From contig JAUJYN010000018.1 of assembly GCA_030737835.1 (NCBI GenBank), positions 3,038,001 to 3,102,000 of the forward strand: a DNA stretch of 64,000 nt, given 5' to 3'. Under the pieces are notes generated by a model, which did not search any database, was not told the DNA's origin, and saw only the letters and a list, made by a program, of their open reading frames with translations. The translations under genes and the position numbers were made by a program. This document shows, piece after piece, positions 10,674-53,589 of the stretch; position 1 is the stretch's first letter, and each line of letters opens with the position of its first letter. The stretch comes from Acorus gramineus. Its lineage: Eukaryota; Streptophyta; Magnoliopsida; Acorales; Acoraceae.

Positions 10674-13083
10674 ACATCGCTCGCACACTAACTAATGAGG
10701 TACATCCCAACGATGGGTCGTACCCACGGCTATTTCAGATAGGCCTAATTAGTTTTAACATGTGCGTATATATAACAGGAGAATTATATCTTAGTTATGT
10801 GCATGAACCATATGCACGATCATCTAACAATTGACTATAAGGGTAATCCTTAACATGGATTTATATCATAAACAATAAATCATACAACATACATACAAGG
10901 TATGGCCAACTTAAACATGCATATGTGGCCATTAATCATTTAGGCACACAAGGCATAACTTAAGCATGCGTTGGATATCACCAACTTAAAAGGGAAGGGT
11001 CAAGCGCGATCTCGCGCACTAACAGGTGCATGCCAATATTCGAAACGAACCTGAGTCGAGTAGGAAATCGCATCTACTTACTCAGTTCGTGCAGAGGGAG
11101 AGGGTGAGAGAGATAATCATCTCGTGAAGCTGGTCATAGCTTTGCCCCATTAGCATGGGCGTAACAACTACACCATGCCCTCGAGTCTTATCGCAAGGAA
11201 ATATTAGGCAGGTGCCCGTTATTAATCCAGACTTATTCATGCTGGATATTCCAATTAATATGATGGGAGTAGTATTACAATACTACCTAAGGCATGCCTT
11301 ATTCTATACATCTGTACATATTACAGAAATATATGCCCATACTAGAGGGGCGCATGCGATACAATCATTCATACATGGATACAATACATGCAATATAAGC
11401 CTAGCATTCAAGATATCTAACATATTATAGTTTAAGCATGGCCGTACTACTTATCTACATAAGTAGTATACCTAGGGTCCCCTATCGATGCGCGACGAAC
11501 GACTACGCCCGTCGAGCGCATCTCGAGGGGGGGGGATTGGATCAAACGGATACTCGGATCGTCTCGCGTCCGGTCTACGAGATCTGCAAAACACAACCAA
11601 CGATCCACAATTAAATTAGGGAACCTCCTATCACACATAAGCCTACTTCATGAAGACCCTAACGCATGATACTTTCATATTATCACCCAAGACAAATGCA
11701 AACAACTCCTTGACACTCAACCAAGCAAAACTGCCAAACCTGCTGCAACCAGCCCTACTAATTGATCTCCACAGCACCCAATACACTTCCAAAAATTATG
11801 AAATAAAACATGCACATTCTCTGATATGCTGGGATCATAATCTATGAAGACATTAGAACCTAATTTTGCCTCTACAAGCCCGAAATAAATTATTTCCAAA
11901 AGCAGGTCAATTCCTACGCCAATCTGGACATGCCATGCAAAACAGGTTCTAACTTACACCACAGATATCATAATAACCCAAAATTTCATATATAACTAGA
12001 CAAATAGATGATCATATAATATGAAGACATAATCGTAGAAATGTGTCACGCCCCAGGGCGGCCGTCCCCGGGACGCGGCAAGTGTATATATGATATCAGA
12101 ATCTACACAGGAGGTCAATAATATATCATACACAAACAACCAGAATGACACACAGACAACAAAGGGGCTGACATGATATATACACCAAATGCGGAAGCAA
12201 AAGACTGAATCTGTAAATAAACATACTACAGACTCGATACTCAATCATATGTCCTGTGAGAGCCAATATACACAAATACAACTGAATATATACAAACACG
12301 TGCCAAGCACGGAAATAAAATACATACAGTCAAGAAGGGATGCTGATAGCCTCTGGCACTCGCGGAACGTAGCGCTGCTCCGCTACTGAAGGAATCCCTC
12401 AGAAGGCTCCAACTGCTGCTCCGGCTCCAGCTCAGGCTCAGTGGCAACTGGGGAAAAACATATGCGAGGGGTGAGCCACACGCTCAGTGAACAGCACAAC
12501 CCATGCATCACAGACAATATCGACCACAATTCAGATCTTCATAATCCACAATTCTCTTATTAACAACCACAAAATGGTAACAAATACTCAAACTAGTGGG
12601 TCGCTCACTCGCCAACCCACTACACCCTCACCCTCACCCTTCAATGGGTGACATAGGATTTTGGGACTGATCCAGTGGGTCGCTCACCGCCAACCCACTA
12701 CACCCTCACCCTCACCCTACCATGGGTGACAAAGGATTTTGGCACTGACTAGGCTGTTGGTCACCCTTGATCCACCGGTAGTCTCTCCTCCACTCCGTAG
12801 GCCGCTTGGCTATCACCCACAACTTCAGCACAGTCCGTCACAAATATCGGGAGGCGCCTACTGATGGGGGCCCCCGGAAGGGACGGCCTTTCTAACGCTG
12901 GGGCAGCCTCTACCGGATCCAACGAAGGGGACAGAACAGCCTATCCATACGCATATGATCCACTCGGATTCGCTGACAACGCATCTCTACAACTCTAATG
13001 TCCTGAATTCCTCAGAATTCCTCCAGGGTGCATAACCAAGATGCGGGGAACATACACAATAATTAGCCAGGGTGGAATATTAC

Positions 13084-13204
13084 TGGGGGAAAGGAACTTG
13101 GGAGGGCAGCGTGAGTTCCCGATATAGGACACCCCGACAACCAAACAAGGAACACGGAGTACCCTAGCCCGGGTCTCACCGCTGTCCTCGCAAGGCCCCT
13201 CCCC
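13084..13204 (-). mobile_element. MITE-like unit, copy b (in LTR F)
   Basis: The minus-strand unit has the core GAACACGGAGTACCC and the rc end GGAGGGGCCTTGCGAGG. It is flanked by GGAATATTAC on the left and TATAATATTC on the right, so the AT-rich target word AATATT is present on both sides. Confidence 0.65.
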
Positions 13205-13267
13205 TATAATATTCACTAAATATGCTAATAATCATATAATATGGTATAACATTTCTTATAATATTAT

Positions 13268-13387
13268 TGGGACAAGAAACCTTGGGAGGGCATCGTGAGT
13301 TCCCGATACAGGACACCCCGACAACCAAACAAGGAACACGGAGTACCCTAACCCGGGTCTCAGTGTTGACCTCGCAAGGCTCCTCCC
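13268..13387 (-). mobile_element. MITE-like unit, copy c (in LTR F)
   Basis: It is a second copy 64 bp from copy b, flanked by TATAATATTAT on both sides. It occupies the same LTR position as the copies at 18085, 20558 and 36140, next to CTAAGGCATGC. Confidence 0.7.
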
Positions 13388-13738
13388 TATAATATTATCT
13401 AAGGCATGCAATTTATCATACACTAGCATTTAATTTAATAAATAAACTAGTAGGACGCATGCATAGGCCAAAGCTTCCTAGCATGAGAACAGGGGAACAT
13501 GATGCATGGCTCATACACCTATCCTAAGGGTGCAAGTCCCTAACATGCAAAGTCTAGGGTAGCATGCATTCTACATTTAAATCATGCTCGCATGGAATAC
13601 ACATTACAACAGGTTAATATAAATCCATGGTGCCCCAGGAGAGGTCGGTATACGCCCAAATGCGTGTAGCGCCTCTCTATTGGGTTGGATTGTCCCACTC
13701 ACCAGAAATCGGGTTGTCGCGCGACCGTCCGTCAAGAT

Positions 13739-14843
13739 CTGCAAGACAGGCATTTATACGGTAAGTAAAACCCACAAATACCACAAAATATACCAAAAAT
13801 ACTCAAAACAATACCCAACACTCGGGCAAACGTACATACGATCCGTACGCACGCTAGCCCGAGCACCCCGACACACTCCCGAACCCACGGCAACCACCCG
13901 CACGGCCGTCTGCCCCCCCCCCCCCCGGACGCGCCGCCGCGCCTCAGCCCGCGCACCCAGGCGCACCGCCGGGCCCCTGCCCGCACGCCTGGACCCGCAG
14001 CCGAGCCACCCGGTGCGCCGCGCGCCCACTGCGCCCCGCCGCAGCAGCCCGCGCGCACCCCGCACGCCCCGCGCGCACCACGCGAGCACACCGCCCCGTG
14101 CCTCGCTCCGCGCGCACCACCAGCTCCGCCCCGCGCGCACTCCGCGCGCACCACCAGCCTCTACCCGCGCGCACGCCTGCCTCTACCCAGCGCCCTGCGC
14201 GCATGCACCTCTGCGGTGCCCAGCGCCCCTGCGCCCAGCGCTCAGCACCCTCGCCCAGCACCCCCGGCATCCGCGACCAGCTCCCAGCGCTCAGCGCCCA
14301 GCACCCGGGACCCTCACCCAGCGCCCGCGCAGCACGCGCCCAGCGCGCCTACCAGCCTGCCCGCGCTGCCTGCCTGCGCGCATCGCCGAGTGGCCCGAGC
14401 ACCGCCCACCTGCACGCCTGGGCACTGCCCGCCTGATGCCCGAGCGCCTCCTGCCCAGCTCGCCTGCGCGCCCAGCCTGCCTGCCCGGCCTGCCAGCGCG
14501 CACAGCCCTGCCAACCTACCCGAGCTAACCCTGCCAGCCTACCCAGCGTGCCCAGCACGCCCAACACCCAGCACGCCCAGCGCCATCCCGAGCGCACGCC
14601 CGCGCGCATGCGCGCGCGCGCCCTGCCGCTGCTCTCATGCTGCGCCTGCCTGTGCTGCCTGCTGCCCGGGACTGCAAGCCTCCTTGCCCGAGCTCCTCTA
14701 CCACCCACCACCGGCCACCCCAAGGCCTCCGACCACCACCCACAGCCCTCCGACGGCCACCCACCGCCGCCGACCGCCTCCCAACCTCAAACCCACCTCC
14801 TAACATACATCTATACAAGAAAAGAGAGGAAAAAGAGGCTTAC
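13739..14843 (-). other. Long leader intron (CpG-rich, 1105 bp) of LTR F
   Basis: On the minus strand the donor GTAAGCC starts at 14843 after ...CCCCTTG, and the acceptor CTTGCAG ends at 13739 before ATCTTGACGGACGG. The centre (about 14210-14600) contains imperfect minisatellite units built on CAGCGCYCAGC and GCGCCCAGCAC. Confidence 0.7.
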
Positions 14844-15161
14844 CAAGGGGAGGAAGAGATGTTCGGTTGCTCTCCGCGCACCGAAACCTTTCCCCAAAGG
14901 CTTCCAACGCCCGGATCTCTCTTGGCCCTCGAAATGGCCCAAATCAGGGAAGAAGAGAGGGGGGACGGAGGGGCAAATCTCGCCGAAATCCGGATTTGAA
15001 AGCACCGGGGTGTAGATCGGGACCCGATCTACACTTCCTATGCTTTAGGTTTTTGGGTTTGAGGGCTCTAAGGGCCTCAAATGGGAGAAAAGGAGAGAGG
15101 GGAGAGAGAGGAAGCTCTTGGTAGGGATGATGAATAGTGCTATCAGATTTTTAGATCACCC

Positions 15162-15170
15162 CTTTATATA
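15162..15170 (-). promoter_or_regulatory. TATA box of LTR F
   Basis: The reverse complement reads TATATAAAG. The conserved CACTATTCATCATC word follows about 30 bp downstream (15126-15139 on the plus strand), a typical TATA-to-start spacing. Confidence 0.6.
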
Positions 15171-16807
15171 GTTAGTGACTTAAAAACCTGGATACGCCCC
15201 GGAACTGCAAAATTTCAGAAACGTTACCGGAATTCGATGAAATTTTCATGAGTGGCTTAAAATGGCACCAGGACACATAATATGCAGTTAGATTTTCAAT
15301 CGGAGTCCTCTAGCTCAGGACGATAGCTAACAGTCCAAAAATTAGCGGTTCCGATCGAAAACCGAAAAAAAATGAAAAACTGCCAGAACACTCCAACGGT
15401 TACCAGCAGGCTAAAAGTGACACATATATAAAAATGTGCCTCTAAATACTAGATTCATTGAGATCATTAAAATATAGAGTGCTGCCTTACCAAAACAGGG
15501 GGAGGGAAATGGGGAGATGAGGGGTTCTCGACAAACCCACGACCACCTTAACCACCACCTCCACTACCACCACCTCATCAGCATCTCCTCAATCCCTTCA
15601 TGGCAGAAAACAGGGGTGCAAAGGGGCATGAGAAGGAGATAGAGAGAAGAGAAACAACAACAACAACACATACTCACCCTTTCTCACTCTTTCTTGTGCT
15701 TCTTCTTCATCTTTTCCTTCAATTGCTTCTTCCTCCTCCTTCTTCACACACAAAGAGGAGAAAAAAAGAGACCAAGAGAGGGAGAGAACATGTTCCATGA
15801 AATGGGAGAGAGCGGGAGAGAGAGAGAAGGCAAAATGGTCAATTTCATGCCCAAATAGTGCCTAGGGGTGACCATAAGGGGGTGGTGAGGTTAGGGTTAG
15901 GCTCACCCACTCACAAATCAAATAACCAATGGTTTCTTCATCCCTAAGCAAGGTGGGGGTAAGGTTACCAAAGGTCACCACATCCTCAAAATATCTCACA
16001 CTATTCGACCAACCAAGAACTCTCAAAACCCGGATACGGTTCGGAACTGCATATTTTTTAAAACGTTACCAGAATTCGATAAAATTTTTATGGGTAGTAC
16101 GAAACAGTACCAGAACCCATAATATGCAGTTAGATTTCCAATCAGAGTACTCAACCTCCCGCAGGTGGCTAAAAGCTAAAATTTTAGCGACGCCGATCGA
16201 AAAAGAAAAAGGCCCTGTGTTATATATGTGTCACTTTTCAGCCTTCTAGTAACCATTGGAACATTCTTGCAGTCTTTCAGCTTTTTTCGTTTTTCGATCG
16301 GAACCGCTAAAATTTCAGACTTTTAGCTATCACCTTGAGTTAGAGGGCTCCGATTGAAAATCTAACTGCATATTATGTGTCCTGGTGCCATTTCAAGCCA
16401 CTCACGAAAATTTCATCGAATTCCGGTAACGTTTCAGAATTTCACAGTTCCGAATCGTATCCGGGTTTTGACCAAGCGAGAAGTCATTGGGAGACTTTAC
16501 TTGGTCAATGTGGGCCCATGACTTGGTCAACTCTTTTGGATTTTAGTGTTGTTGGGTTGACTAGGGTCAAATCTCACCTAAGTGCACCTAAACCTAAGCC
16601 TAAACCTAATTAATTAGCCCTAAGTTAAGTGGGTGTGAGAGTGTGTGGTGTGTGTGTGAGCATAAATAAATCCCACGACCAAATAAAGCTCCCCCACTAT
16701 TCGTCATCCCTTCCAACTCTCTCAAGCTCTCTCTCCCTCTCTTTATTTCCCCTTTATGATCTAGTAGAAGGGGTTGAATCAAGAAACCCTAGAAGGAGAA
16801 AAGAAAG

Positions 16808-23000: not shown

Positions 23001-23682
23001 CAAGTGCCACGCCCCAGGGCGGCCGTCCCCGAGACACGGCAATATATAAAGTATCAGCTATCAATACCTAAGGTCAACAAAGACTCCAACAACAACAACA
23101 CACAAGGTGGCAAAGCAAAGATAAATGATAACTGACTGAAAAGAGGAAGCATAAGATATCAACAATGTCTGTAAACCAAAAATATCATTACAGACTCGAA
23201 TACACAATCAATGTCCTGTGAGAGCCAAGTCTAGTCCAAATAAAATACAACATGTGCCACATGCACGATTTACAATACATACAATGACCCTAGGACTGCT
23301 GACAGCCTCGCACTCACCACCTGCCAGATAGAACGATCCACGCACACAAGACCACGCCACAGGGAAGCTCCAGCTCCACGCCCAACACTGCCCCTGAAAA
23401 GAAACAGTATGCGAGGGGTGAGCTACAAGCTCAGTGAGTGGCTGGAAACCAATCACCATTACAACAGTTTAATGTTAAGGCAATTTCCTTTCAAGGAAAA
23501 CATGGGTGGAAACCCAATGGATAACAAGGTCACGCGGCAGCGCGACCAACCTCACCCTCACCCTCACTCCCGGAGGGAGACTCTTGGGACTCTTGGGGAG
23601 AGACCATACCGTTGGTCGAAGAGACGCAGAATTACTGGTCTACATGACACTACAAGATCATCTATATCGAGATAACTGCCCA

Positions 23683-25428
23683 ACCCCGATAATCTCAATT
23701 CCTGCTCGGGGACGGAAGCAAAGCAGTCTTACTTCATGTCCAATAGAGCACTCGTCGTGAAGGAGCGTACGTAAGGCTAAGGAAGGCGCATTTCCACCCC
23801 ATGCGTACTAAGGTAAGTCTAATGAGTAGGCCCGTAAACCTCTCGTAAGCTCGGAGAGTATGGCATGGAAGATTTAACACTGATTAAGCGGAAGCTAAAT
23901 TGTGTTTTTTTTCCATTGTTAAAAGAAACATACTTTGGGTGAGCGGCAGTGGTAAACAAAGTTGATAGTCGTATCGAATGAATATAAGAAAGGATAAAAA
24001 GTGATCCCCGTTACTCGTGCATCATTTAGGGCGAAAGGAATTGATTACTTTTTTACCATCAGCATACCCAGATACTCTCCGAGCTTAACAGAGAGGTTCA
24101 TGCATAACTAATAAAAAAAAGGCAACAAAACAACAAAAAAACTCTAACAAAAAGCAACAAAAAAACAACTCAAACTCAAGCAACAAAACAACAACGGGAA
24201 TGTCGTAGATATCGTCGGCGCCGAACACCGCAACCTGTACTTAGAAAAGGGTACCTTGTCAAGTTGCGGTACAAGAAGGCGGCGCCCTTATCTGCTCATA
24301 AATAGGCTTCCGAGTTATCCGTTATCGCACTCCTCTAGGGACGTCTAACATCAATGCTCGGATCAAAGTTTATTACCTCTCCTTTTAAAACCGGCTCGAA
24401 GGTTTATGCTTTAGTCGCTTCTTTCTCTAACTGGGCGAGCTTGCTTTGTTTCCGTATCTGCAACTCATGGAAGTTCATTCTATGCTGGATCCACTATTTC
24501 TGCTGCTGAAAGGTGGTGAAATGACGCGAGCGAAGGAAAAGTTTTTATTATGCTTTTTCGTATGATGGTGCTGCATCACTGGCTTCTGAACTTAGCTCGC
24601 CTGATCCTTCTCTACACTTTCTCAGTTTTATTACCCATCGAGTATGAGGTATGATATTTTCATTAAAAAGTTTTATTTAATAGGGATTCAAATTTTAAAG
24701 ATTTATTGATTTTCTTTGAAACAAGATTTCAATTTATCAGTTTGATTTTATAGTTTATTTTACCATTAAAAAATAAGCCAATTTGAAAGTTTTTAAGTGT
24801 TCTTTTGTGTATCTAATTATCTGCCCCTCAGGCCGAAATACAGTATAAATTACTCTCTAATCTCTTTCTCAGTTTTATCACTTAATATCCGTTTTCTTTT
24901 TAAAGATTTAGAAATGCCTAAAAACAAGAAAATAATTTCAATTTAAAAGTTTGATTTTATCGTTGATTTTCTTACCAACAAAGTAAAAAGAGACTATACT
25001 TTTACCATTCCTTGATCATTGAAAAGATAGAAAGGAAGGAGCGGGGTTCAGACCAGCCCTAGTCATCGATGTATTCAATCCAACCTCATTATTAAAACTC
25101 CCATTCCTGTTTCCCCTACTGATTCAACCAACGTTTTTTACACTGCTTTTCTAAAATCTCCTATAGCAGTTTAAGCGACACCATCTCGCCTTCCGGGGTA
25201 CGTGTAAGCTCTTGCCAAAGTTCCTCCGTATACTGACCTTGTTCCAGGTCGTGGCCGAATGAATCCGTCGTCTCTACGCTTCTTCTCGTCCTCGTCTACG
25301 TCCGTTCATCACCTCAGAAGCGAATTCGCGTGTAGGAAGCGCTGTCTGTCTACCGTTTACTCTATCTATTGATCCGACTTACCTCTCCATTCATTAAGAA
25401 ATAAGAGATTGACCAATACTCATTTGTC
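23683..25428. other. Unique AT-rich insert (about 1.75 kb) in LTR C
   Basis: The LTR sequence breaks after GATAACTGCCCAAC and resumes at about CTCTGAACATCGATACG; the two parts are contiguous at 33600-33655 (rc). The insert matches nothing else in the window and has no ORF of 60 residues or more. It holds a CAACAAAA-rich low-complexity tract (24110-24195) and an inverted repeat (23837-23863 with 24072-24102). No TG..CA or TC..CTRR ends or clear target duplication are visible. An organelle-derived or captured host segment is possible; I do not recognise it. Confidence 0.6.
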
Positions 25429-26429
25429 GTCTGGTGTCTCTGAACATCGATACGTAACCGGACTCAACAACTATGGGAACGGACGAAAAACGAATGGGTC
25501 ACGTGGCGATGTGACTTCACCTCATCTTCACCCTCACCCTCACCCTTAAGGGTGACACAAGACTGTTGGAAGAAAACCTTTTGTTCTACACCCTTCGTCA
25601 TCCGGTAGCCCTCTCCCGACCAGCCTCTACTTGGTATACTCCCATGATCAGTACATCTGCCGAATGCATCGGTAGTACCTATAGGTGGGAGCCCTCTATC
25701 AGGACAGCTTTAACGTCGGGTAGCTTCAATACGGATCTGAAGAAGGGGAGAACAATTCCACGCTCGCAAAATCATCCAGTAGCCCTTTCCCGCGTAGCCT
25801 CTACCTGTCAGCTTTACACAATCGGTACATCAGCCAGATGCGTACCGCGATACACATCAGTAGAAACTACAAGTGGTAGCACCCAAACATGACAGCTTCG
25901 ACGCTGGGGTGTTCGATGCACGACAATGTCGGGAGGAAACACCCCGCGTTCGCAAAGCGAACCCTATGGGAAAGTCAACTATGCCAGATAATCACATATT
26001 GATGATATTAAATACTCTTGTAGTCCCACACGGTTGCATCGCTCAGACACAAGGGGTTGCCTCTGCTCTCATGCAGAAATAAGCCCAAGGCACATAACCA
26101 ACAGGCGGTTTATACACATGCCTAGCACGGGTAGGCTTAGCTTAATGCCATAACTACCGGCTTAACAAAACCGATAAGATAATGAATTCTCCTGAATTCC
26201 AAATGAGTGCATCGCTCGGATGCACGGGGGCGATTACATCGCTAGCGCTCTAACTAATAAGGTACAACCCGACAACGGGTAATACTCATGCCTATTTTAG
26301 ATTGGCCTAATCAGTTTTAACATGCACATATATATCCATGAGAATTATATCTTAGTTATGTACATGAACTACATGCACGATAACATATCAAATAATTATA
26401 GGGATACTCCCTAACATGGATAAACAATA

Positions 26430-26540
26430 TATATACCATGCATGGGCTAAATAATATGCATACAAGCCTACAAGCATACCTCATGTAAGCATACAAGCAT
26501 GCTTCATACAAGCATACTAGCATTCAAGCATATACCCTAA
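26430..26540. repeat. AAGCATAC-type minisatellite in LTR C
   Basis: Imperfect tandem units of the form acaagcata(c/t)(c/t)tcat repeat about five times. The same motif is expanded in LTR J at 62380-62505, at the equivalent LTR position. Confidence 0.6.
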
Positions 26541-27214
26541 AATGCGTTGGATATCACCAACTTAAAAGGGAAGGGTCAAGCGCGATCTCGCGCACTTACA
26601 GGTGCATGCCAATATTCCCAAACGAACCTGAGTCGAGTAGGAAATCGCATCTACTTACTCAGTTCCCGCAAAGAGGGAGGGCGAGAGAGAGGGAAAGTCT
26701 CATCCTCTTCGAAAGCTGGTCATAGCTTTGCCCCAACAAGATGGGTGCAACAACCATACCATGTCCTCCAGTCTTATGACCAGGGAATATTAAGTATGCA
26801 CCCGGTTATTAACCCAGGTTTAATCATGCTAGATATTACTAACATAGGGAGGTAGTACTATAAATAGAGACTACCTAAGGCATGCATATTCTATACATTC
26901 ATATTAACACACATCACGCATGCCCATGCACGAAGGGCGCATGCAAACATAATAATTCACACATGAATATGATACATAGACAAGTATATGGTAGAAATAG
27001 GGGGTTCTACACAATATACGAGCTATACTAACCTAGCATGCAAATACCTAGCATATTATGGGTTAGACATGACCATACTACTTATCTAAATAAGTAGTAT
27101 AGTCAAGGTGCCCAACGGATGCGCGACGCACGACTACGTGCATCCAACGCTTCCCGAAGGGTTGGATCGAACCACTCACCGATACCCAGATCGCCGTGCG
27201 TCCGGTCTATGAGA

Positions 27215-27216
27215 TG
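27215..27216 (-). other. Exon-exon junction (intron absent) in LTR C
   Basis: The rc sequence on the exon 2 side starts ATCTCATAGACCGGACGC, and the leader-exon side ends CCCTCCCCTTGTTTTC. In other type I LTRs exactly these two words are separated by GTAAGGC to TTTGCAG (for example 45899-46294 and 2350-2866). Only the last leader-exon base differs. Confidence 0.75.
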
Positions 27217-28644
27217 AAAACAAGGGGAGGGAAAATGGGGAGATTCGGGGTTCTCGACACACCCACGACCACCTCAACCACCACCACCACTACCACCACC
27301 TCATCAGCATCTCCTCAAGCCCTTAATCATCTTCTTTGCACCCCCTTTTGTGCTTCTTCTTCTCCTTCAGTTGCTGATTTTTTTCTTTTTAAAACTCACT
27401 AGAGAAAGCCTAAAAGGGAGAGAAAAGAGAGGGACGTTGGAGGGAGAGGGAGAGAGAGAGTTCTCACTCTCAAAGGGTGTTTAATGCCCAAAAAGTGGGT
27501 GGTTGGGGGGGGTTTGACCTTGTCAACCCAACCAAGGAAATAAACAAAACCCATTGGCTTGAAAAAGTCAACTTTGACTGGTCAAAGTCTCCATTTGACA
27601 ATCCAGTATCGACCAAAACCAGAATACGATTCGGAACTACATAATTTCCTAAAACGTAACCAAAACTCGAATGAAATTTTTATGAGTAGTACAACACAGT
27701 ACCAGGACCCATAATATACGGTTACATTTTCAATCAGAGTACTCCAACTCCTGTAGGTGGCTCCGAAATTTTAGCGACTCCGATCGAAAAAATAAGGCTC
27801 CAAATGACACAGGCATAACCCCAAGGGAGGGGGGATGAAAGGGGGAGATTTGGGGGTCCTCGATGCACCCACGACCACCTCAACCACCACCACCACTACC
27901 ACCACCTCCACAGCCTCTCCTCATCTTTCTTTGGCTGAAAAACAGGGGGGAAAGACATGAGAGGGAGCTTGAGAGAAGAGAAACCACAACAATAACAACA
28001 CTTACAAACAAACACACCTTTTTGCACTTCCTTCTTCACCTTCTCCTTCAATTGCTTCTGTTATGCCTGTGTCATTTGGAGCTATTTTGGTTAAGCCTTG
28101 GTCGCATCTGGGTCATTCAGGGCCTTTTTCTTTTTCGATCGGAGTCGCTAAAATTTTGTCTTTTAGCCACCTGCGGGAGTTGGAGTACTCTGATTGGAAA
28201 TCTAATTGCATATTATGGGTCCTGGTACTGTTTCATACTATCCATAAAAATTTCATCGAATTCCGGTAACGTTTTGAAAAATATGCAGTTCTGAACCGTA
28301 TCCGGGTTTTGAGAGTTCTTGGTTGGTCGAATAGTGTGAGATATTTTGGGGATGTGGTGACCTTTGGTAACCTTACCCCCACCTTGCTTAGGGATGAAGA
28401 AACCATTGGTTATTTGATTTGTGAGTGGGTGAGCCTAACCCTAACCTCACCACCCCCTTATGGTCACCCCTAGGCACTATTTGGGCATGAAAATGACCAT
28501 TTTGCCCTCTCTCTCTCTCCCCCTCTCTCCCATTTCGTGGAACATGTTCTCTCCCTCTCTTGGCCTCTTTTTTTTTCCCTCTTTGTGTGTGGAGAAGGAG
28601 GAGGAAGAATCAAATGAAGGAGAAGAAGAAGGAAGCACAAGAAG

Positions 28645-28727
28645 GTGAGTTTTGTGCATGTGTGGTTGTTGTGGTAGTTTCTCCTCTAGCAAGCTCCCTC
28701 TTATGTCTTTCCCCCCCTGTTTTGCAG
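28645..28727 (+). other. Short leader intron of LTR L (83 bp)
   Basis: The donor GAAG|GTGAGT, a pyrimidine tract and the acceptor TTTTGCAG|CCAAAG bound the intron. This is the clearest short intron among type I copies. Confidence 0.65.
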
Positions 28728-31081
28728 CCAAAGAAGGCTGAGGAGGGCTGTGGAGGTGGTGGTAGTGGTGGTGGTGGTTGAGGTGGTCGCGGGTGCATCG
28801 AGGGCCCCCGAATCTCCCCCTTTCATTCCCCCTCCCTAGGTGAGCTCTTCCCCTTCTTTTCTTTGGTTTTCATGGCTTTAGGGGTTGTTGGGAAGTCATG
28901 CATGCTAGGTAGTTGGTTTAGGGTGAGTGAGAAGTGTGGAGGAGGGGTTAAAAGTGGTTAAAAGGGGTTAAGAATGGCTGGGCATGCGCGCGGGTCTGTC
29001 CGCGCGCGTGCGCACATAGAAGCGCGCGCAGAGGGGCGCTGGCAGGCGCAGGCGGGGGCACAGGCGGGCGTGTGCGAGTGCGCGCGGGCGTTGGTAGCGC
29101 GCGCGGTGCGCGCAGGACGTCAGCGCGAGTGTGCGCGCGCGCGGGGCAGTGGGTCTGGGCGTGCGCCTGGGCATGCGGCAAGGTGCCAGTGCGCCCGCGC
29201 GCGTGTGCGTGCGAGTGCTAGGGCATGCGCGGGGCTGCCCAGGGGTTCGGGTAGGTGCTGGGGCACTCGTGCATGCGTGCGTACGCGCGTGCTCACATGC
29301 ATGCGAGCCCGTATGCGTGCATGTCTAAGTCTGTAACGTCTCTATATTTTTAGCCTTATATATTTATTTTAAATATATAATAGAATTTTTAAATTGAAAT
29401 TTAATTATTTCATTTTTCAGATTTGGCGGTGGGCCCAAATGGGTCTAATTTGATTTATAATTTTGATAATTATAAATTGATGTTGAAATATTTATTTTAT
29501 ATTTTTCTGGAGATCTTTATAGTCTCAAGATATTTTGGTTGAAATTTGGTGAGATTCGGAGTTCAGGAAATTAGGTTTTTAGGATTTTGTGTTAAGTTAT
29601 TGGGCCCAGGGATCTAGTTGCGAATCCAGAATATCTTTTAATAGGATTCAGGGATCTGTTTGTAACTCGGATAGGGATCTGTCTGTAAATCGGATAAGGA
29701 CCTAGTTGTAAACCCGTAATACTTGAGGGGTCGTTTTGTAATTTGGTAAAAACCCCTTTTATATAACACGTTTTGGGTTAGGGTTTGCATCAGAATTCTC
29801 ATGAGACATGAAGGGTGTGGATGACCTAACTCTACCCGTCGAGCACCACAAGGTGATAATTCTTTCTCTATTGATTTTGTTATTTAGTATTTCAATTTAT
29901 TTTTGGTTAGGAGATGATTGTGTCAATCGATTTTTTGGGGAAGAAGGTTGATGGATTAGGGTTAGGGTTAGGGTTTGATTGATTTTAAATAGATGATGTT
30001 TTTATTAGATTTCAATGGATCTCGAAGGATTTCTTAAGATCAAACTAGATTTATTGGTTTTGGGATTTAAGGGTTATTTTCGGGTTGATTGTATACCTGA
30101 TCATTTAAATCGTGTTTTTGACTATGATAGAGTAGTTTCTGGGAAAATTGTATGTCACAAACAAAAATAGGTTTTGCAAATATCTTTCCAACAAATCATG
30201 AATCGTCCAATTCGGAGTTACAGGTAGAAAGTTATGATTTTTCAAAGATTTCTGTGCAGTTTCTTAGAATTCAAATATTTAGCTTCATGACCAAGTTTGA
30301 TGAATTTTAGAGATTAAAGGGATCCCAAATGGATGTTTAATGAGTATAATTTGATTTATGGGTTTTGATGATTTTATTGATCTGGTGACTCAAATTGGAT
30401 CTTAAATCGATAATTTGGTTTAGTGGGATCAATGAATATTAATTGGATATTATTGTTATTTGGATATAAATTGATTGGATTGAGTTATTTGGATCATTGG
30501 AGTTGTAGTGAAGCCTTAGTGGATCATTGGAGTTGTAGTGGATTATTTGTCTAAATATTTTATTCGAGGATTGATCGATTATGTGGGCTTTATGAAATAA
30601 ATGGATATTGATTATCGGATCATTGTGAGATATGAATATTTTAATTTTTATTCGGAGTTGGGATTTTTGTTAGGCCTTTAAGGTGAGTTGCGGATTGTAG
30701 GTCTATTTGGTACGGGCTCTTGGGATTATTGGGCCGAGTGTTGTTGTCAGTTGTTTGTCATGATTGAATGATTTTCTTATTTATTGATTGTATAATTGTT
30801 ATGCTAGATTATCCACGTGCGAGTGTGTAGCGTTCATGCACGTGCATCGGTTTGTATTGCGTGGACTGGAGGTGAGTGGATGTCTCTATATTATTTGAAA
30901 AGCATCATGTTATTTTATGATTATGAAATCTATCTTGTATGAACCATATGAGCATGTTATCATCATATAGGTTGATATTTTGGATATATTGTATGCATTG
31001 GAAATTATGGGATTTATGAAAATTGTCGCATGCTGTATACTTGAAAGAATAAGTAGTTTTGATTGTGCATGCATTAAATCG

Positions 31082-31160
31082 TCTAGGTGGCTCAGTCTAG
31101 GTGGCTGCGGTCTAAATTTGACCCAAGTCTAGGTGGCTATGTCTATGTGGCCCGATTTCT
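31082..31160 (+). repeat. TCTAGGTGGC tandem repeat
   Basis: Four to five imperfect copies of (g)tctaggtggc(t) occur within the third-family LTR, spaced 15-35 bp apart. Confidence 0.6.
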
Positions 31161-31716
31161 AAAGTGAAATCCCTACGGCTAGGTGTCGTGGAAAGCGGGC
31201 ATGCGTGTCCGTTGCATTCATATACATCATGTAGTTGAAATCATGAGAAGATTTTTATGACATCATATTTTATTCGAAAGAGAAATGTTATTATATCCTT
31301 GAATGTTTTAAATGGCTTCTTTATTATAAGCTTTGCTTTATATATTACAACAATTGTTCCATAAGCACTTTATAACTGATTATTTTAAAGTATAATATAT
31401 TATTGGGACACTTGGGTCCATTCATTGAGCGCGTGGTAGCTCATCCCTCTCTTTTCCCAACCTTTCAGATTAGCTGTTGGTGGTTGTCGATCTCGTTAAG
31501 GCGTTGGAGGTTGAAGCTCGTATTTTATTTCCGGAGCACTAGACTTGTGTAAAAGGTGTTGGTCATTTCTTTGGCATGTAGAGGACCCATATGTATGATA
31601 GTGTGGACATATAAATTTAGTTGTTCCCGATGTATATTGAATTTGTGTTGGATTTTAGCCTTGACAATATATGTATAATTATGGGATGTATTCGTATGTT
31701 CTCTAGATGAAGAAAA

Positions 31717-31718
<2 letters not shown>

Positions 31719-31750
<32 letters not shown>
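31719..31750. repeat. TA microsatellite
   Basis: An uninterrupted run of TA dinucleotides lies near the 3' end of the third-family LTR. Confidence 0.9.
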
Positions 31751-31753
<3 letters not shown>

Positions 31754-34653
31754 CTCTGAGATTTGAGGAATTTAGTTAACGCAACCGGATTTCACGCTTC
31801 AAAATGGAGCCGTGGATCCGGGGGCGTTACAAAGTCTTTTGTATTTCTAGTAATTTCTAAGTGTTGTAATGTGATTTTACTCACCAAATTGAATGCCCTT
31901 ACTTTGCAGATCTCGTCAGATGGGATGCGCGAGGTCCCGGGTTGCGGTGAGTGGTTTGATCCAACCCCCCCCCCCCCCCCGCTTCGAGATGCGCTTGACG
32001 CGCGTAGTCGTGCGTCGTGCATCGATGGGGCATCCTAGCTATACTACTTGTGTAGATAAGTAGTATGGCCATGCTTAAACTATAATATGTTAGATATCTT
32101 GCATGCTAGGCTTATATGGCATGTATTGTATCCATGTATGAATGATTGTGTTGCATGTGCCCCTCTTGTATGGGCGTGTATTTATGTAATGTGTACGGAT
32201 GTATAGAATATGGCATGCCTTAGGTAGTATTGTAATACTACTCCCACCATATTAATTGGAATATCCAACATGATTAAGTCTGGGTTAATAACGGGCATCT
32301 GCCTAATATTCCCTTGCGATAAGACTCGAGGGCGTGGTGTAGTTGTTGCGCCCATGCTAATGGGGTAAAGCTATAACCAACTTCATGAGATGATGATCTC
32401 TCTCGCCCTCTCCCTCTGCACGAACTGAGTAAGTAGATGCGATTTTCTACTCGACTCAGGTTCGTTTGGAATATTGGCATGCACCTGTTAGTGCGCGAGA
32501 TTTGCGCTTGACCCTTACCTTTTAAGTTGGTGATATCCAACGCATGCTTAAGTTAGGCCTTGTGCGCTTATGTGATTAATGGCCATGTATGCATGTTGTA
32601 TGATTTATTATGATGTAAATCCATGTTAGGGAGTATCTCTATAATTATTTGATAGGTTATCGTGCATGTAGTTCATGTACATAACTAAGATATAATTCTT
32701 TTGGATATATATGCGCATGTTAAAACTGATTAGGCCTATCTGAAATAGGCGTGGGTATGACCCGTTGTCGGGTTGTACCTTATTAGTTAGAGCGCTAGCG
32801 ATGTAATCGCCCCAGTGCATCCGAGCGATGCACTCATTTGGAATTCAGGAGAATTCATTATCTTATCAGTTTTGTTAAGCCGGTAGTTGTGGCATTAAGC
32901 TAGGCCTATCCGTGCGAGGCGTGTATATGAACCGCCTGTTAAGTTATGTGCCTTGGGATTATTTCTGCGTGAGAGCAGAGGCAACCCCCTTGTGTTCGAG
33001 CGACGCAACCGTGTGGGAGTACAATAGTATTTGATATCATCGATATGTGATTATCGAGAGTAGTTGTTTTTCCATTGGGTTCGCTTTGCGAACATGGAAT
33101 GTTTACTCCCAATGTCGTCCGTGTTGAAGAGGCCCGGGTTGTAGCTGTCCTGACAGAGGGCTCCCATCCGTAGGTACCACCGATGCGTTCGGGAGCGTAC
33201 TGATCGTGGGAGTGTACCAGGTAGAGGCTACCCGGGAGAGGGCTAACGAATGATATTGCAAGTGTGGAATCGTTCTCCCCTTCGTTGGATCCGATGTAGG
33301 AACTTCCCGGTGTTGGAAAAGCTGTCCTGACAGAGGGCTCCCATCCGTAGGTACCACCGATGCGTTCGGAAGCGTACTGATCGTGGGAGTATACCAGGTA
33401 GTGACTACCCGGGGAAAGGGCTACCGGTGGACCAAGGGTGTAGAGGAGTCTAATCTCTCCAAAAGTCCTATGTCACCTCTAAAGGGTGTAGAGGAGTCTT
33501 ATCTCTCCAAAGGTCCTATGTCACCTCTAAAGGGTGAGGGCGAGGATGAGGTGAAGACACGTCGCCGCGAGACCCATTCGTTGTTCGTCCGTTCCCATAG
33601 TTGTTGGGTCCGGTTGCGTATCGATGTTCAAAGACATCGTTGGGCAGTTATCTCGATGTAGATGATCCAGTAGCGTTGTGTAGACCAGTAATTTCGGGTC
33701 TCTTCGACCAACGGTATGGTCTCTCCCCAAGAGACCCAAGAGTCTCCCTCCGGGAGTGAGGGTGAGGTTGGTGATTCAGTAGTGTTGTGTGGACCAGTAA
33801 TTCCGCGTCTCTTTGACCAACGGTATGGTCTCTCCCCAAAAGTCCCAAGAGTCTTCCTCCGGGAGTGAGGGTGAGGGTGAGGTTGGTCGCGTCGCCGCGT
33901 GACCTTGTTATCCATTGGGTTTCTGTTATATAGGTGTCACTTTTAACCTTCTGGTAACCGTTGGGACATTCTGGCAGTTTTTCAGTTTTTTTCGTTTTTC
34001 GATCGGAACCGCTAAAATTTCAGGTTGTTAGCTATCGCCTTGAGATAGAGGGCTCTGATTAAAAATCTAACTGCATATTACGTGTCCTGGTGCCATTCCA
34101 AGCCTCTCACGAAAATTTCATCGAATTCCGGTAACGTTTCTGAAATTTCATAGTTCCGGGGCGTATCCGGGTTTTGACCGAGCGAGAAGTCATTGGGAGA
34201 GTTGACTCGGTCAAAGTGGGCCCATGACTTGGTCAACCCTTTTTGTTTTTTTTGTGTGGTTGGGTTGACCCAAGTCAAAGCCACTTAAACTCTTTAATCA
34301 AGCTTAAAACCCTAATTAACCTTGATTACCCTAATCTAAGGGTGGTTTGACTTATTTAAGTGAGCTAAAAAGGTTGCCCACCACTATTCATCATCTTCTC
34401 AAATTGATTTCTCTCTCTCCCCTCTCTCTTTTTCAAGCTTTTGAGCCCCCTAGAGTCCTCAAAGCTTAAAACCTAAAACATAGGAAGTGCGGTGTTTTCA
34501 AATCCGGATTCCGGCGTGTCTAGCCTTTCCTTCCCCCCTCTTTTCTCCCCTGATTTGGACCATTTCGAGGGCCAAGGGAGATCCCGGCGTTGGAGGCCTT
34601 TGGGGAGAGGTTTCGGTGCGCGAAGAGCAACCGAGCATCCTTGCTTCCCCTTG

Positions 34654-35790
34654 GTAAGCCCTTTTTCCTCTCTTTCATTGCATAGATGTTTGTTAGGATG
34701 ATGGTTTTGGGGTTGGGAGGCGGTCGGTGGCTGTGGGTGGCTGTCGGAGGTGGTTTTGGGCGGTCGGAGGCCATGGGTGGCCGGTGGTTGGTGGTGGAGG
34801 TGCTCGGGCAAGGTGTTAGGCAATCCCGGGCAGGATGCCAGGGCTGGCAGGGCTGTTCTGGGCGGGTAGCAGGGCTGGCAGCGGGCGCAGCAGGCAGGCG
34901 CACCAGTTTGCCGGGCGCGCGAGCGCGTGCGCGCGGGCGCGCACGCGGGCGTGCGCTAGGGGGGTGCAGGGGGAGGCGTGCTGGGTAGGAGGTGCTCGGG
35001 CATCAGGCGGGCAGTGCTCGGGCGTGCAGGCGAGCGGTGCTCGGGCCACTCGGCGATGCGCGCAGGCAAGCAGCGCGGGCAAGCAGCGCGGGGCGAGGCG
35101 CTGGGCGCGTGTTGCGCGGGCTTGCGCGTGGGCGCTGGGTGAGGGTCCCGGGTGCTGGGCGCTGGGCGCTGGGTGAGGGTCCTGAGTGCTGGGCGCTGGG
35201 TCACGGATGCTGGGTGAGCTGGGCAGAGGCGCAGGCGTGCGCGCGGTGAGGTGAGCAGTGGGTGCGAGCGGGCGGGTGCGCGTGCGGGGCGCTGCGCTGG
35301 GGCGCAGTGCGCACGGGTGCACCCGGGGCTAGGCGAGCTGCTGGTCGAGTGGGTGGTGAGCGCGGGGTGCGCGCGGAGCGAGGCAAGGGCAGCGGAGGTG
35401 CGCGCGGGGTGCGCGCGGGGCGAGGCGCTGGGCGCGCGGGGCATGCGGTGTGTGCGTGGGCCAGCGCGGGGCGTGCGGGGTGCGCGCGGGCTGCTGCGGT
35501 GGGGCGCAGCGGGCGCGCGGTGCACCCGGGTGGCTCGGCTGCATGTCCAGGCGTGCGGGCAGGGGCCCGGCGGTGCGCCTGGGTGCGCGGGCTGAGGCGC
35601 GGCGGTGCATCCGGGGACGGGTGGCCGTGCGGGTGGTTGCCGGGAGTGCGGGAATGAGTCGGGATGCTCGGGCTAACGTGCGTACGGGTCGTATGTACGT
35701 TTGCCCGAGCGTTGGGTGCTTTTTAGAGTGTTTTGTGTATTTTTGTAGTAATTGTGGATTTTACTCACCAGTTAATACCCTGTCTTGCAG
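34654..35790 (+). other. Long leader intron (1137 bp) of LTR 33924-37310
   Basis: The donor CCTTG|GTAAGC and the acceptor CTTGCAG|ATCTTGACGG bound the intron. It includes a GGGCGCTGGGTGAGGGT minisatellite (about 35125-35225) and a long CpG-rich core. It is the longest intron copy in the window. Confidence 0.7.
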
Positions 35791-36139
35791 ATCTTGACGG
35801 ACGGTCGCGCGACGACCCGACTTCCGGTGAGTGGGACGATCCAACCCAGTAGGGAGGCGTTACATGCACTTGGGCGTGTACCGTCCTCCCCTGGGGCATC
35901 GTAGTGAATATTAACCTGTTTAATGTGAAAACTATGTAAGCATGATAATCTGTAGTATGCATGCCACCCTAGATTGTATGCTAGGGACTTATACCCTTAG
36001 GACCCGTATAAGAACCATGCACCCTGTTATCATGTTTCCATGCTAGGAAAGCCCCGACCGATGCATGTTCCCATTTAGTTTAATTTGTTTAAATAAAATG
36101 CGAGCATGTGATTATTAGCCTGTATTAGTGAATATTATA

Positions 36140-36262
36140 GGGGAGGGGCCTCGCGAGGACAGTGGTGAGACCCGGGCTAGGGTACTCCGTGTTCCTTGTT
36201 TGGTTGTCGGGATGTCCTATATCGGGACCTCACGCTGCCCTCCCAAGGATTCTTTCCCCGTT
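36140..36262 (+). mobile_element. MITE-like unit, copy g
   Basis: The unit has the same core as the others and is flanked by AATATTATA on the left and AATATTCCA on the right (7 of 9). It has a few extra G bases at its left end. Confidence 0.7.
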
Positions 36263-38503
36263 AATATTCCAACCTCTTTATTATTGTAATGCATGTTTCC
36301 CCGCATCCTGGTTATGCGCCCTGTTGGAATTCTGAAGAATTCAAGGCATTAGAGTTGTAGAGATGTGTGGTCGGCGGATCCGAGTGGATCATATGCGTAT
36401 GGATAGGCTGTTCTGTTTCCCTTCGTTGGATCCGTGTAGAGACTGCCCCAGCGTTGGAAAGGCCGTCCCTTCTGAGGGCTCCCATCAGTAGGCGCCTCCC
36501 GATATTTGTGACGGACTGTGCTGAAGTTGTGGGTGAAGGCCAAGCGCCCTACGGAGTGGAGGAGAGACTATCGGTGGACCAAGGGTGACCAACAGCCTAG
36601 TCAGTCCCAATATCCTATGTCACCCATAGAAGGGTGAGGGTGAGGGTGTGGTGGGTCAGCAATGGGGTGACCCACTGGTTTGTGGAATTGTGGTCTAAGG
36701 ATGATTATTAGACTAGTATGTCCCAACATCCTATGTCACCCATTGAGGGTGAGGGTGAGGGTGTGGTGGTTCGGCGTTGTACGAACCACTGGATTTATGA
36801 TGTTATGCCACTTTGAGGCTGGTTGTTAATTAATTGTGGTTAATATAGCTGTGATGCATGGGTTGTGCTGTTCACTGAGCGTGTGGCTCACCCCTCGCAT
36901 ATTTGTTTTCTCCAGTTGCCACTGAGCCGGATCAGCAGGAGGAGCCTTCCGAGGGATTCCTTCAGTAGCGGAGCAGCGCTACGTCCCGCGAGTGTTAGAG
37001 GCTATCAGCATCCCTTTTTGGCTGTATGTATTTTATTTCCGTGCTTGAGCACGCGTTTGTATATATTCAGTTGTATATTGTGTATATTGGCTCTCACAGG
37101 ACAGATGATTGTGTATCGAGTCTGTAGTATGTTTTATTTACAGATTCAGTCTTTCGCTTCCGCATTTGGTGTATATATCATGTCAGCCTCCTTGTTGTCT
37201 GTGTGTCATTCTAGTTGCTTGTTTATGGTATATTATTGAACTCCTGTGTGTTACTGATATCATATATACACTTGCTGCGTCCCGGGGTCGGCCGGCCCTT
37301 GGGCGTGACATTTCTACCCATGTTTTTCATTGAGAGGAAATTGCTTTAGTATTGAACTGTTGTATGGTGATTGGTTTCCAACCACTCACTGAGCTTGTAG
37401 TTAACCCCTCGCATACTGTTTCTTTTCAGGGGCAGTGTTGGGCGTGGAGCTGGAGCTTCCCTGTGGCGTGGTCTTATGGGCGTGGTGCGTTCTTCCAGCG
37501 GGTGGCGAGTGCGAGGCTGTCAGCAGTCCTAGAGTCATTTTATGTATTGTAAATCGTGCATGTGGCACAGGTTGTATTTTATTTGGACTAGACTTGGCTC
37601 TCATAGGACAGTGATTGTGTATTCGAGTCTGTAATAATGTTTTTGGTTTACAGACATTGTTGATATCTTATGCTTATGCTTTTTAGTCAGTTATCATTAT
37701 CTTTGCTTTGCCACCTTGTGTGTTGTTGTTGGAGTCTTTGTTGACCTCAGTTATTGATAGCTGCTATTTCATTGTTGCCACGTCTCGGGGACGGCCGCCC
37801 TGGGGCGTGACAGCTTCTTCCTCCTCCTTCTTCACACACAAAGAGGGGAAAAAGAGACCAAGAGAGGGAGAGAAAGAGAGATCCACGAAATGGGAGAGAG
37901 GGGGAGAGAGAGAGAGGGCAAAAATGTCTTTTTCAAGCCCAAATAGTGTCTAGGGGTGACCATAAGGGGGTGGTGAGGTTAGGGTTAGGCTCACCCTCAC
38001 TCAACCACTCATTTTTGCTTTATTGGGAAGCGTGCGGAGAAGCACCACACACTCAAAAATATCTCACCCACTGAAACCCAGTAACGGCCAAATCTGGATA
38101 CGGTTCGGAACTGCATATTTTTCAAAACGTTACCGGAATTCGATGAAATTTTTATAGGTAGTACAAAACGGTACCAGGACCCATAATATATAGTTAGATT
38201 TCTAATCAGAGTACTCCAACTCCCGCAGGTAGCTAAAAGCCAAAATTTTAGCGACTCCGATCGAAAAAAATAAGGCTCCGAATGACACAGGCATAACAAC
38301 TTAAGGGTGGTGTTCAGGAATGATAGTGCACGGTGAGTCCTCTGTGGAGGCTCAATTGAAGGATCTTCAGGGAGATGATACATGAATTATCTGATGTAAG
38401 TGTATTGATAATCCTCTATCTTGAAGCGCGTTTGATGCCTTCTCAACCACTGTTGCTCAGCATCTGTTTTAACAGCATCCATCAGAATATCAAAGCCTAA
38501 ATG

Positions 38504-44913: not shown

Positions 44914-45695
44914 AAAGAGGGGAGTGTCCACTAGACAATAGATCAAAATGGGTAATAAGGTGCTTGATTTGACCTCCCATTAGATCTTTGTTCTCTGACT
45001 GTTATGCCTGTGTCATTTGGAGCCTTATTTTTCGATTGGAGTCGCTAAAATTTTGGCTTTTAGCCATCTGCAGGAGTCGGAGCGCTCTGATTGAAAATTT
45101 GGCTACATAATTTTTCTCCTAGAAGTTATGTATTTCCGATTTGGTATTTGGATTTAATTTTGTTAAAATCCAAGATGAAGAGGTTTAAATATGATTTTAT
45201 CATGAGATGCTCAGTTTTGAGTTAGCTTTCGTACAAAAGTTGAATTAGATCAACTGGATTCATGTAGTAAAAGTTATGGGTATTTTTCCAAGTATACCCC
45301 AGGGATGAAAAATTCTGGCAGCAGCCCTGTTCAATGTTTAGCTCTCATTTCGGAATAGCTGGAGGGATTATTTGATCTTGACATAAACATGAAAGTTGTA
45401 GATAATCTTCTTGGCTTTCCAAAGGATTTTGAATTGTGTAATTCGGAGCTATATCGTGGAAGTTATGGCTGTTCTAGTGAAGCCCGTCCAGAATTTCTGG
45501 TCAGGGACGATTTGGTCTTGTCCCCCCCCACCAACTCACTTTATCTCCATTTAAAACCCCCCTTTTGTGGAAACCTCTCACTCCCTCTCACTCTCGTCTC
45601 CCTCTCCCTCTCTGTTTTTTTGGTTGTGTGTGTGTTGTTAATGGAGGAAAGGATGAAGAAGAAGCTCATGAAAGAGTGAGAAAGGGTGAGAAAAG

Positions 45696-45704
45696 GTGAG
45701 CATG

Positions 45705-45736
<32 letters not shown>

Positions 45737-45787
45737 CTCTTCTCTCAATCCCCTTCTCATGCCCTTGCACCCCTGTTTTCTGCCAAG
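45696..45787 (+). other. Short leader intron of LTR 45000-48669 (about 92 bp)
   Basis: The donor AAAAG|GTGAGC lies before a TTG repeat and a pyrimidine-rich stretch. The acceptor is uncertain (GCCAAG|AAGG) because the usual TTTTCAG is altered. Confidence 0.45.
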
Positions 45788-45898
45788 AAGGGCTGGTGGA
45801 GAGGCTGAAGAGATGGTGGTAGTGGTGGTGGTGGTGGTTGAGGTGGTCGTGGGTGTGTCGATAACCCCGCATCTCCCCATTTCCCTCCCCCTGTTTCG

Positions 45899-46294
45899 GT
45901 AAGGCAGCTCACTGTCTTTTAAAGATCTCAGTGAATCTAGTATTTAGATGCATAATTTTAGGATTATGTCTTCTTATGATTTGATCAGCTATGTGTCTAG
46001 ATGTTATATATGAAATTTGGGGTCATTATGATATCTGTGGTGTAAGTTAGAACCAATTTTGCATGACCTGTCCAGATTCGCGTAGGAATTGACCTGCTTC
46101 GGGAAATGATTTGTTTCGTAGGGCTGGTTGCAGCAAGTTTAGCCGTTTTGCTTGCTTGAGTGTCAAGGAGTTGGTTGCATGTGTCTTGGGTGATAATATG
46201 GAAGTATCAGGGGTTAGGGTCTTCATGAAGTAAGCTTATATGTGTGATAGGAGGTTCCATAATTTAATTATGGATCATTGGTTGTGTTTTGCAG
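45899..46294 (+). other. Long leader intron of LTR 45000-48669 (396 bp, AT-rich)
   Basis: The donor TTTCG|GTAAGG and the acceptor TGTTTTGCAG|ATCTCGTAGACC bound the intron. It is homologous to the AT-rich introns at 2350-2866 and 61180 onward, and unlike the CpG-rich form. Confidence 0.7.
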
Positions 46295-53534: not shown

Positions 53535-53547
53535 TTCTTCCCCCCTT
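53535..53547 (-). other. Polypurine tract of K
   Basis: The reverse complement reads AAGGGGGGAAGAA immediately upstream of the 3' LTR. It is the expected plus-strand primer for reverse transcription. Confidence 0.85.
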
Positions 53548-53589
53548 AGGAAATTTTGTCCTCAAAATAATACAAAAACATCTAGGAAG

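What the first reader, a model, noticed from the sequence alone, without database searches (positions are those of the whole stretch)
23005..27820. LTR C looks like a copy made from spliced RNA
In C the word before the donor and the word after the acceptor of the long intron are directly adjacent at 27215/27216, and the short intron is missing within about ten bases of its predicted sites near 27340. Two independent absences at splice sites in one copy fit reverse transcription of a spliced transcript better than random deletion. It also supports the view that the introns are real and lie in R/U5.
Basis: partly seen in the sequence, partly recalled or inferred. Interest (0 to 1): 0.82.

Follow-up and report, generated by a model that had tools for sequence, protein, structure and literature searches.

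The report
Retrotransposon LTR copied from spliced RNA
One long terminal repeat of a plant-type retrotransposon lacks, to the base, an intron-like segment that the comparable copies nearby still carry, which is what a copy made from spliced RNA would look like and suggests that these repeats carry introns the element usually avoids losing.

Summary
C (27820-23005, minus) is a solo LTR with TSD CTTGG. At 27216|27215 its exon-like flanks abut: against B and E the missing piece has exactly the intron length (517, 396 nt), and the exact splice cut is among the best-fitting joins for A, B and E. The 12 other spanning copies in the splice table keep the segment with GT..AG; a thirteenth (H) does by reading. 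Between subfamilies the flanking exons are homologous but the intron bodies are not. None of 22 other gaps of 40 nt or more among A, B, E and F coincides with an intron. Reverse transcription of a spliced RNA is the best explanation for the long intron; a deletion between TGTTTTG repeats needs one extra 3-nt loss. The short intron is absent too, but its edges fit only within about 1-9 nt of the sites in A, B and E, which have lost its AG acceptor. C keeps a third conserved splice-like pair, so its RNA was at most partly spliced. Location in R or U5 was not shown. No genome is held, so other intronless copies could not be sought.

The parts
23005..27820 (-). LTR C, solo LTR with TSD CTTGG, lacking introns 1 and 2
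27215..27216 (-). C exon 2 | exon 3 junction; the long intron (intron 2) is absent exactly
27326..27345 (-). C exon 1 / exon 2 join; the short intron (intron 1) is absent, edges uncertain by several nt
27180..27215 (-). C exon 3 (36 nt), followed by the conserved donor GGTGAGTGG
23394..27179 (-). putative intron 3, retained in C, with an internal insert at 23685-25434
45000..48669 (+). LTR E, solo, TSD CTGAC; intron 1 45696-45782, intron 2 45899-46294
2350..2866 (-). intron 2 of LTR A (517 nt); A is a 3' LTR starting at 3641
11584..15490 (-). intron 2 of LTR B (517 nt after leaving out the nested LTR 15433-12044)
28059..37812 (+). LTR F, solo, TSD GCTTC; intron 1 28645-28727, intron 2 28840-31909 containing a nested solo LTR 29332-31831 of a third family (TSD AAGTC)
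27821..28058 (-). piece of LTR H whose intron-2 donor was hit by the insertion of C; H continues at 23004-22468
50878..61124 (-). related full element (family 2) with gag, RT, RNase H and integrase matches and a sub-threshold chromodomain match; both LTRs carry introns 1 and 2
49803..49908 (+). C-like U3 of copy N (continues 63783-64000); leaves the window before exon 2, so it cannot be tested

Best explanation
The LTRs of these Ty3/gypsy-type elements carry GT-AG introns on the element's sense strand: a short one (74-100 nt), then an exon of about 105 nt, then a long one (396-1137 nt). C descends from a copy made when an element RNA from which at least the long intron, and probably the short one, had been spliced was reverse transcribed and integrated; the 5' end of the RNA supplies R and U5 of both new LTRs, so the intronless state becomes fixed in the LTR. 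C is now a solo LTR. Shown: the exact absence of intron 2 in C; its presence with splice signals in the other spanning copies; non-homologous intron bodies between homologous flanks; C's TSD. Inferred: that the segments are spliced in vivo, that the intermediate was RNA, and where R and U5 lie.
For: Intron 2 donor is GT in 15 of 15 copies and acceptor AG in 12 of 12 that reach it (boundaries were placed by eye at homologous positions, so these counts are descriptive); H agrees by reading. Exon 2 and the 300 nt after the acceptor are homologous between intron types (E-F and B-F: 0 of 200 shuffles reach the score) while intron bodies are not (E-F: 35 of 200 reach it; B-F: 19 of 200); in both pairs the alignments stop 6 nt before the donor and resume 6 nt before exon 3. 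The missing piece in C equals the intron length in B and E and the exact splice cut is in the best set for A, B and E. Exon 2 of C is closest to B, E and A (83.5-86.7%), all intron-bearing. 0 of 22 control gaps coincide with intron ends. C has a TSD and both LTR ends. Copying of spliced retroelement RNA into DNA is known elsewhere (abstracts: PMC5860796 for L1, PMC1868081 for HIV-1, PMC2925334 for MLV SDARE).
Against: One intronless copy only, and A, B and E are not independent of each other. The base before the junction is C where the 15 tabulated copies have G, so one substitution must be assumed. Intron 1 fits only approximately, and A, B and E have TG at its acceptor. C keeps the third splice-like pair, so splicing would have been partial. 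Type I introns (F and family 2) are G-rich, with T 18-24% in 5 copies measured, unlike typical plant introns. C's nearest relative changes along the LTR (exon 2: B 86.7%; LTR end: B 94.1%; after exon 3: F 81.0%; U3 to exon 1: none above 67.2%) and tree supports are modest, so its intron-bearing progenitor is not identified. No RNA data.
Confidence: 0.7

Rival explanations
1. Ordinary DNA deletion by slippage or end joining at short repeats: TGTTTTG occurs at the end of exon 2 and again just before the acceptor CAG in A and B, so a deletion between the repeats would remove almost the whole intron; a further loss of CAG would then leave C's sequence. Intron 1 would be a second deletion.
For: The repeat is present in A and B (E has TGTTTCG at the first site). 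Intron-1 edges in C are not exact. Copy G, as read, shows that large deletions occur in these LTRs (from inside intron 2 to inside intron 3).
Against: The predicted product keeps CAG: 29, 30 and 29 ungapped matches of 44 against 33, 36 and 35 for the exact splice cut in A, B and E. That scoring penalises an insertion heavily; with gaps allowed the product loses by the cost of one 3-nt gap in 9 of 9 comparisons. So it needs one extra event, not an impossible one. 0 of 22 other gaps fall on intron ends.
Confidence: 0.18
2. Intron loss by gene conversion: an already inserted C was converted by a cDNA of spliced element RNA, rather than C being a fresh insertion from spliced RNA.
For: Gives the same exact junction. 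The copies look mosaic: U3 type and intron type are incongruent among A, B, E, F, G and J, and C's nearest relative changes along the LTR.
Against: Needs an extra recombination step; conversion tract edges were not searched for. It shares the spliced-RNA step and differs only in how the cDNA entered.
Confidence: 0.08
3. The intronless state is ancestral and the introns were gained later.
For: Two unrelated intron bodies sit at the same position, as if something had been gained or replaced there.
Against: Introns 1 and 2 sit at the same places in both LTR families, and type I intron bodies are alike in F and family 2 (score 175 against a maximum of 40 in 200 shuffles; shuffles keep base composition only, and both are G-rich), so the intron appears older than the family split.
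Confidence: 0.04

Closest known systems
SpIREs, spliced integrated retrotransposed elements of human L1 (PMC5860796; abstract and outline seen)
   Same: A retroelement RNA spliced within its 5' regulatory region is copied back into the genome, leaving a copy that lacks the intron.
   Different: L1 is a non-LTR element; there the splice lies in the 5' UTR or 5' UTR/ORF1. Here it is inside an LTR, so reverse transcription would put the loss in both LTRs.
MLV SDARE and reverse-transcribed spliced HIV-1 RNA (PMC2925334, PMC1868081; abstracts and outlines seen)
   Same: Spliced RNA of an LTR-bearing retroelement serves as a reverse transcription template; SDARE exists integrated.
   Different: Those introns are not wholly inside the LTR (recalled, from no call).
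Introns of plant LTR retrotransposons: Ogre, BARE1, EVADE, Bagy2, CRR (passages of PMC12786077, PMC3735527, PMC6317226)
   Same: Plant LTR elements with partly spliced transcripts, discussed as a way to separate RNAs for translation from RNAs for replication.
   Different: As described in those passages the splicing concerns gag, pol or env, or the space between them, not introns inside the LTR.
Splice donors in LTR R/U5 (foamy viruses, HTLV-1; recalled, from no call)
   Same: A splice site inside the LTR.
   Different: There, as recalled, only the donor is in the LTR; here donor and acceptor both are.

Membership tests
Ty3/gypsy LTR retrotransposon | pol order reverse transcriptase - RNase H - integrase | tested here: met
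   Family 2 element only: Retrotrans_gag, RVT_1, RT_RNaseH, Integrase_H2C2, SH3_Tf2-1 in that order on the minus strand. For the family 1 element (B to A) only SH3_Tf2-1, in 1 of 8 pieces scanned out of 11 minus-strand open frames listed.
Ty3/gypsy chromovirus | Chromodomain at the end of pol | tested here: inconclusive
   Chromo match E 0.00024, 21.4 bits, below Pfam's cut-off of 25.1.
LTR retrotransposon | LTR ends TG..CA, target-site duplication, tRNA primer site and purine tract | tested here: met
   Of 12 LTRs or elements checked, 9 show a 5-nt TSD, X18585 6 nt, R 4 nt and Q 3 nt. TGGTATCAGA follows 58466 and 6389, GTGGGGGAGAA precedes 3641; its assignment to initiator tRNA-Met is recalled. 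The TG start is mutated in C and Q.
Spliceosomal (GT-AG) intron | Conserved GT donor and AG acceptor, exons conserved beyond the intron body | tested here: met
   Intron 2: GT 15 of 15, AG 12 of 12; exon homology without intron homology. Intron 1 is weaker: GT 12 of 15, AG 10 of 15.
Spliceosomal (GT-AG) intron | T-rich body typical of plant introns | tested here: inconclusive
   8 copies measured: type II intron 2 38-39% T, intron 1 34-51% T, type I intron 2 only 18-24% T.
Spliceosomal (GT-AG) intron | Excised in RNA | not testable with these tools
   No transcript data held.
Spliced retrocopy (SpIRE-like) | Exact exon-exon junction together with hallmarks of integration | tested here: met
   Exact for intron 2 with TSD; one copy only.
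Spliced retrocopy (SpIRE-like) | All introns of the transcript lost together | tested here: not met
   Intron 1 absent but not exact; putative intron 3 retained. So C is not filed as a fully spliced retrocopy.

The most novel reading that the evidence does not exclude
Each LTR is an intron-bearing transcription unit with three sense-strand introns. Splicing of the 5' LTR part separates mRNA from genomic RNA; only unspliced RNA is normally reverse transcribed, which keeps the introns. LTR intron presence or absence is then a heritable record of which RNA pool was copied, and C is a rare leak from a partly spliced pool (introns 1 and 2 out, intron 3 in).
Probability: 0.35. Interest if true: 0.8.

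Novelty: new variant of a known kind. Interest (0 to 1): 0.6.

Why it matters
An intron inside an LTR should be erased whenever a spliced RNA is copied, so its persistence in two LTR families would mean that replication mostly uses unspliced RNA. Intronless copies such as C would let anyone with a genome assembly count how often spliced RNA is copied instead, which bears on the open question of how retrotransposons divide their RNA between translation and replication.

Tried and rejected
Direct-repeat deletion as the source of the long-intron loss fits worse by one 3-nt gap and is kept as the main rival; because the first scoring was ungapped and so biased against it, my odds were moved from 0.74/0.14 in the draft to 0.70/0.18. 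Intron gain is unlikely because both families share intron positions. A protein encoded across the LTR exons was examined in five family 2 copies: exons 3-4 share an open frame in 4 of 5 (Y differs and has a stop), of which 3 end at the same TAG and Z2 reads past it; exon 2 has stops in this frame in X39078 and P8061, the open stretch of Z1 holds no Met, and F (family 1) has a 37-nt exon 3 instead of 36. Left as a side observation. Intron replacement was set aside in favour of old divergence plus recombination between subfamilies, which was not tested further. Searches for relatives outside the window found none: viral contigs and genome contigs of bacteria and archaea. For introns inside LTRs I recognised no paper in the titles and abstract starts listed (15 of 28 listed; no hits); all but a few were seen as listings only, among them PMC5542766, which holds the phrase 'intron in the LTR' once about an HIV-1 vector. 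The Ogre splicing paper PMC2596294 was not held.
Full report
Setting. The window is a stack of nested Ty3/gypsy-type LTRs; no genome is held for it. A full element at 50878-61124 (minus strand) has gag, reverse transcriptase, RNase H and integrase matches and a sub-threshold chromodomain match, with 2.66-kb LTRs (family 2). C belongs to a second LTR family (family 1), of which copies A, B, E, F, G/M, H, J, K and N lie in the window in whole or part. Of 12 LTRs or elements checked for target-site duplications, 9 show 5 nt (C, F, E, G/M, Y, X39078, P, the family 2 element, and a solo LTR of a third family), X18585 6 nt, R 4 nt and Q 3 nt.

What C is. C is a solo LTR, 27820 to 23005 on the minus strand, with TSD CTTGG. 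It lies inside another LTR, H, at H's own long-intron donor (read).

The segments are intron-like. Fifteen copies were tabulated, with boundaries placed by eye at homologous positions. For intron 2 the donor is GT in 15 of 15; the acceptor is AG in all 12 that reach it. J, K and G end or are rearranged before the acceptor; H, interrupted by C, agrees by reading and is not among the 15. For intron 1 the donor is GT in 12 of 15 (not J, Q, R) and the acceptor AG in 10 of 15 (not A, B, E, Q, R). The strongest argument is homology: between E or B (type II intron) and F (type I) exon 2 and the sequence after the acceptor are related, but the intron bodies are not, and in both pairs the alignments stop 6 nt before the donor and restart 6 nt before exon 3. 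Type I bodies are alike in F and family 2 (score 175, maximum of 200 shuffles 40), so the intron appears older than the split of the two families; those shuffles keep base composition only. A weakness is that type I introns are G-rich rather than T-rich.

The long intron is missing from C exactly. Against B the gap is 517 nt, the intron length, in 4 of 4 alignment settings; against E it is 396 nt, the intron length, in 3 of 4. Against A the placement varies, and against F, Z1 and P it is unstable. When every cut within 40 nt of both sites is scored without gaps, the exact splice cut is in the best set for A (33 of 44 positions, 5 tied cuts), B (36, 2 tied) and E (35, 3 tied). The product of recombination between the TGTTTTG repeats scores 29, 30 and 29. 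That scoring is hard on an inserted CAG; with gaps allowed the product still loses, by the cost of one 3-nt gap, in 9 of 9 comparisons. So the rival needs one more event. A blemish of the splice reading is the last exon base, C where the 15 tabulated copies have G. As a control, pairwise alignments among A, B, E and F in one setting hold 22 gaps of at least 40 nt, none with both edges within 5 nt of an intron's ends; C's alignments to the same four hold 14, of which 4 do: intron 2 against B and E, intron 1 against A and F. Against A and F the intron-2 gap, and against B and E the intron-1 gap, miss that limit. The pairs are not independent.

The short intron. It is missing too, but the exact cut is not best in any of 8 references. 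The best cuts are +1 to +4 and -1 to +2 nt off against A and B, with a further tie at +7/+5 for A, 6-9 nt off on the donor side against E, +6/+6 against F, and up to 23 nt off against the more divergent copies. A, B and E, C's nearest relatives in exon 2 (83.5-86.7%), have TG in place of AG at this acceptor. The loss fits splicing in a progenitor with an intact acceptor but does not prove it.

Ancestry of C. In exon 2 C falls with A, B and E, but its nearest relative changes along the LTR (LTR end B 94.1%, after exon 3 F 81.0%, U3 to exon 1 none above 67.2%) and tree supports are modest. Its intron-bearing progenitor is therefore not identified. That it had the intron is inferred from the presence of the intron in both families.

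A third splice-like pair. GGTGAGTGG occurs 10 times in the window against 0.53 expected; by position nine are at the end of exon 3 of tabulated LTRs or C, and the tenth (30871) is in the third-family LTR. E and X39078 have a one-base or two-base variant, A and B lack it. A conserved block followed by a pyrimidine tract and usually an AG lies about 390 nt from the LTR end (12 matches, none expected); of 11 copies tabulated, X18585 and Y have lost the AG and E has it shifted by one. C keeps both sites. If intron 3 is real, C came from a partly spliced RNA. Since sequence just after this donor is also conserved between families, its conservation could have another cause.

Mechanism. In LTR-element replication the 5' end of the RNA supplies R and U5 of both new LTRs (established knowledge). 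An RNA spliced in that stretch therefore yields intronless LTRs. That introns persist in two families implies that the RNA normally copied is unspliced.

Comparison. SpIREs of human L1, MLV SDARE and reverse-transcribed spliced HIV-1 RNA (abstracts of PMC5860796, PMC2925334, PMC1868081) show that spliced retroelement RNA can be copied. Plant elements with introns (Ogre, BARE1, EVADE, Bagy2, CRR; passages of PMC12786077, PMC3735527, PMC6317226) are described as splicing RNA of the coding region. I recognised no paper on complete introns inside plant LTRs in the listings, most of which I did not open.

Verdict. It rests on one copy.

Noticed in passing
9180, 13695, 17767, 20240, 27172, 30871, 31946, 35826, 52082, 59666: Donor-like GGTGAGTGG occurs 10 times against 0.53 expected, nine at the end of exon 3 of the LTRs and one in an LTR of a third family; with a conserved acceptor block near the LTR end it suggests a third LTR intron.
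   Followed up: partly
family 2 LTRs 58466-61124, 50878-53534, 39078-41660, 8061-10673: Joined exons 3-4 share an open frame in 4 of 5 copies translated, 3 of the 4 ending at the same stop; possible small LTR-encoded protein, no start codon found in the open stretch of the first.
   Followed up: partly
LTR copies A, B, E, F, G, J: U3 type and intron-2 type are incongruent (A and B share U3 type with F but not intron type; E shares U3 type with J and G but not intron type, intron types by reading), pointing to recombination between subfamilies.
   Followed up: partly
27821-28058 and 22468-23004: C inserted into LTR H right at H's long-intron donor; the TSD CTTGG overlaps the splice site.
   Followed up: yes
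23685-25434: 1.75-kb insert in C's putative intron 3 with no relative in the window at the settings; no TSD recognised by eye.
   Followed up: no
62617 and 61526-61529: LTR G/M, as read, carries a deletion joining the inside of intron 2 to the inside of intron 3, and a truncated junction with LTR K.
   Followed up: partly
49803-49908 and 63783-64000: Copy N has a C-like U3 but leaves the window before exon 2; a candidate for a second intronless copy.
   Followed up: no
34484-34557 (R33924) and 14940-15037 (Q12044): Two family 2 LTRs have lost both intron-1 splice sites (GA donor, no AG) while keeping the intron-like sequence.
   Followed up: no
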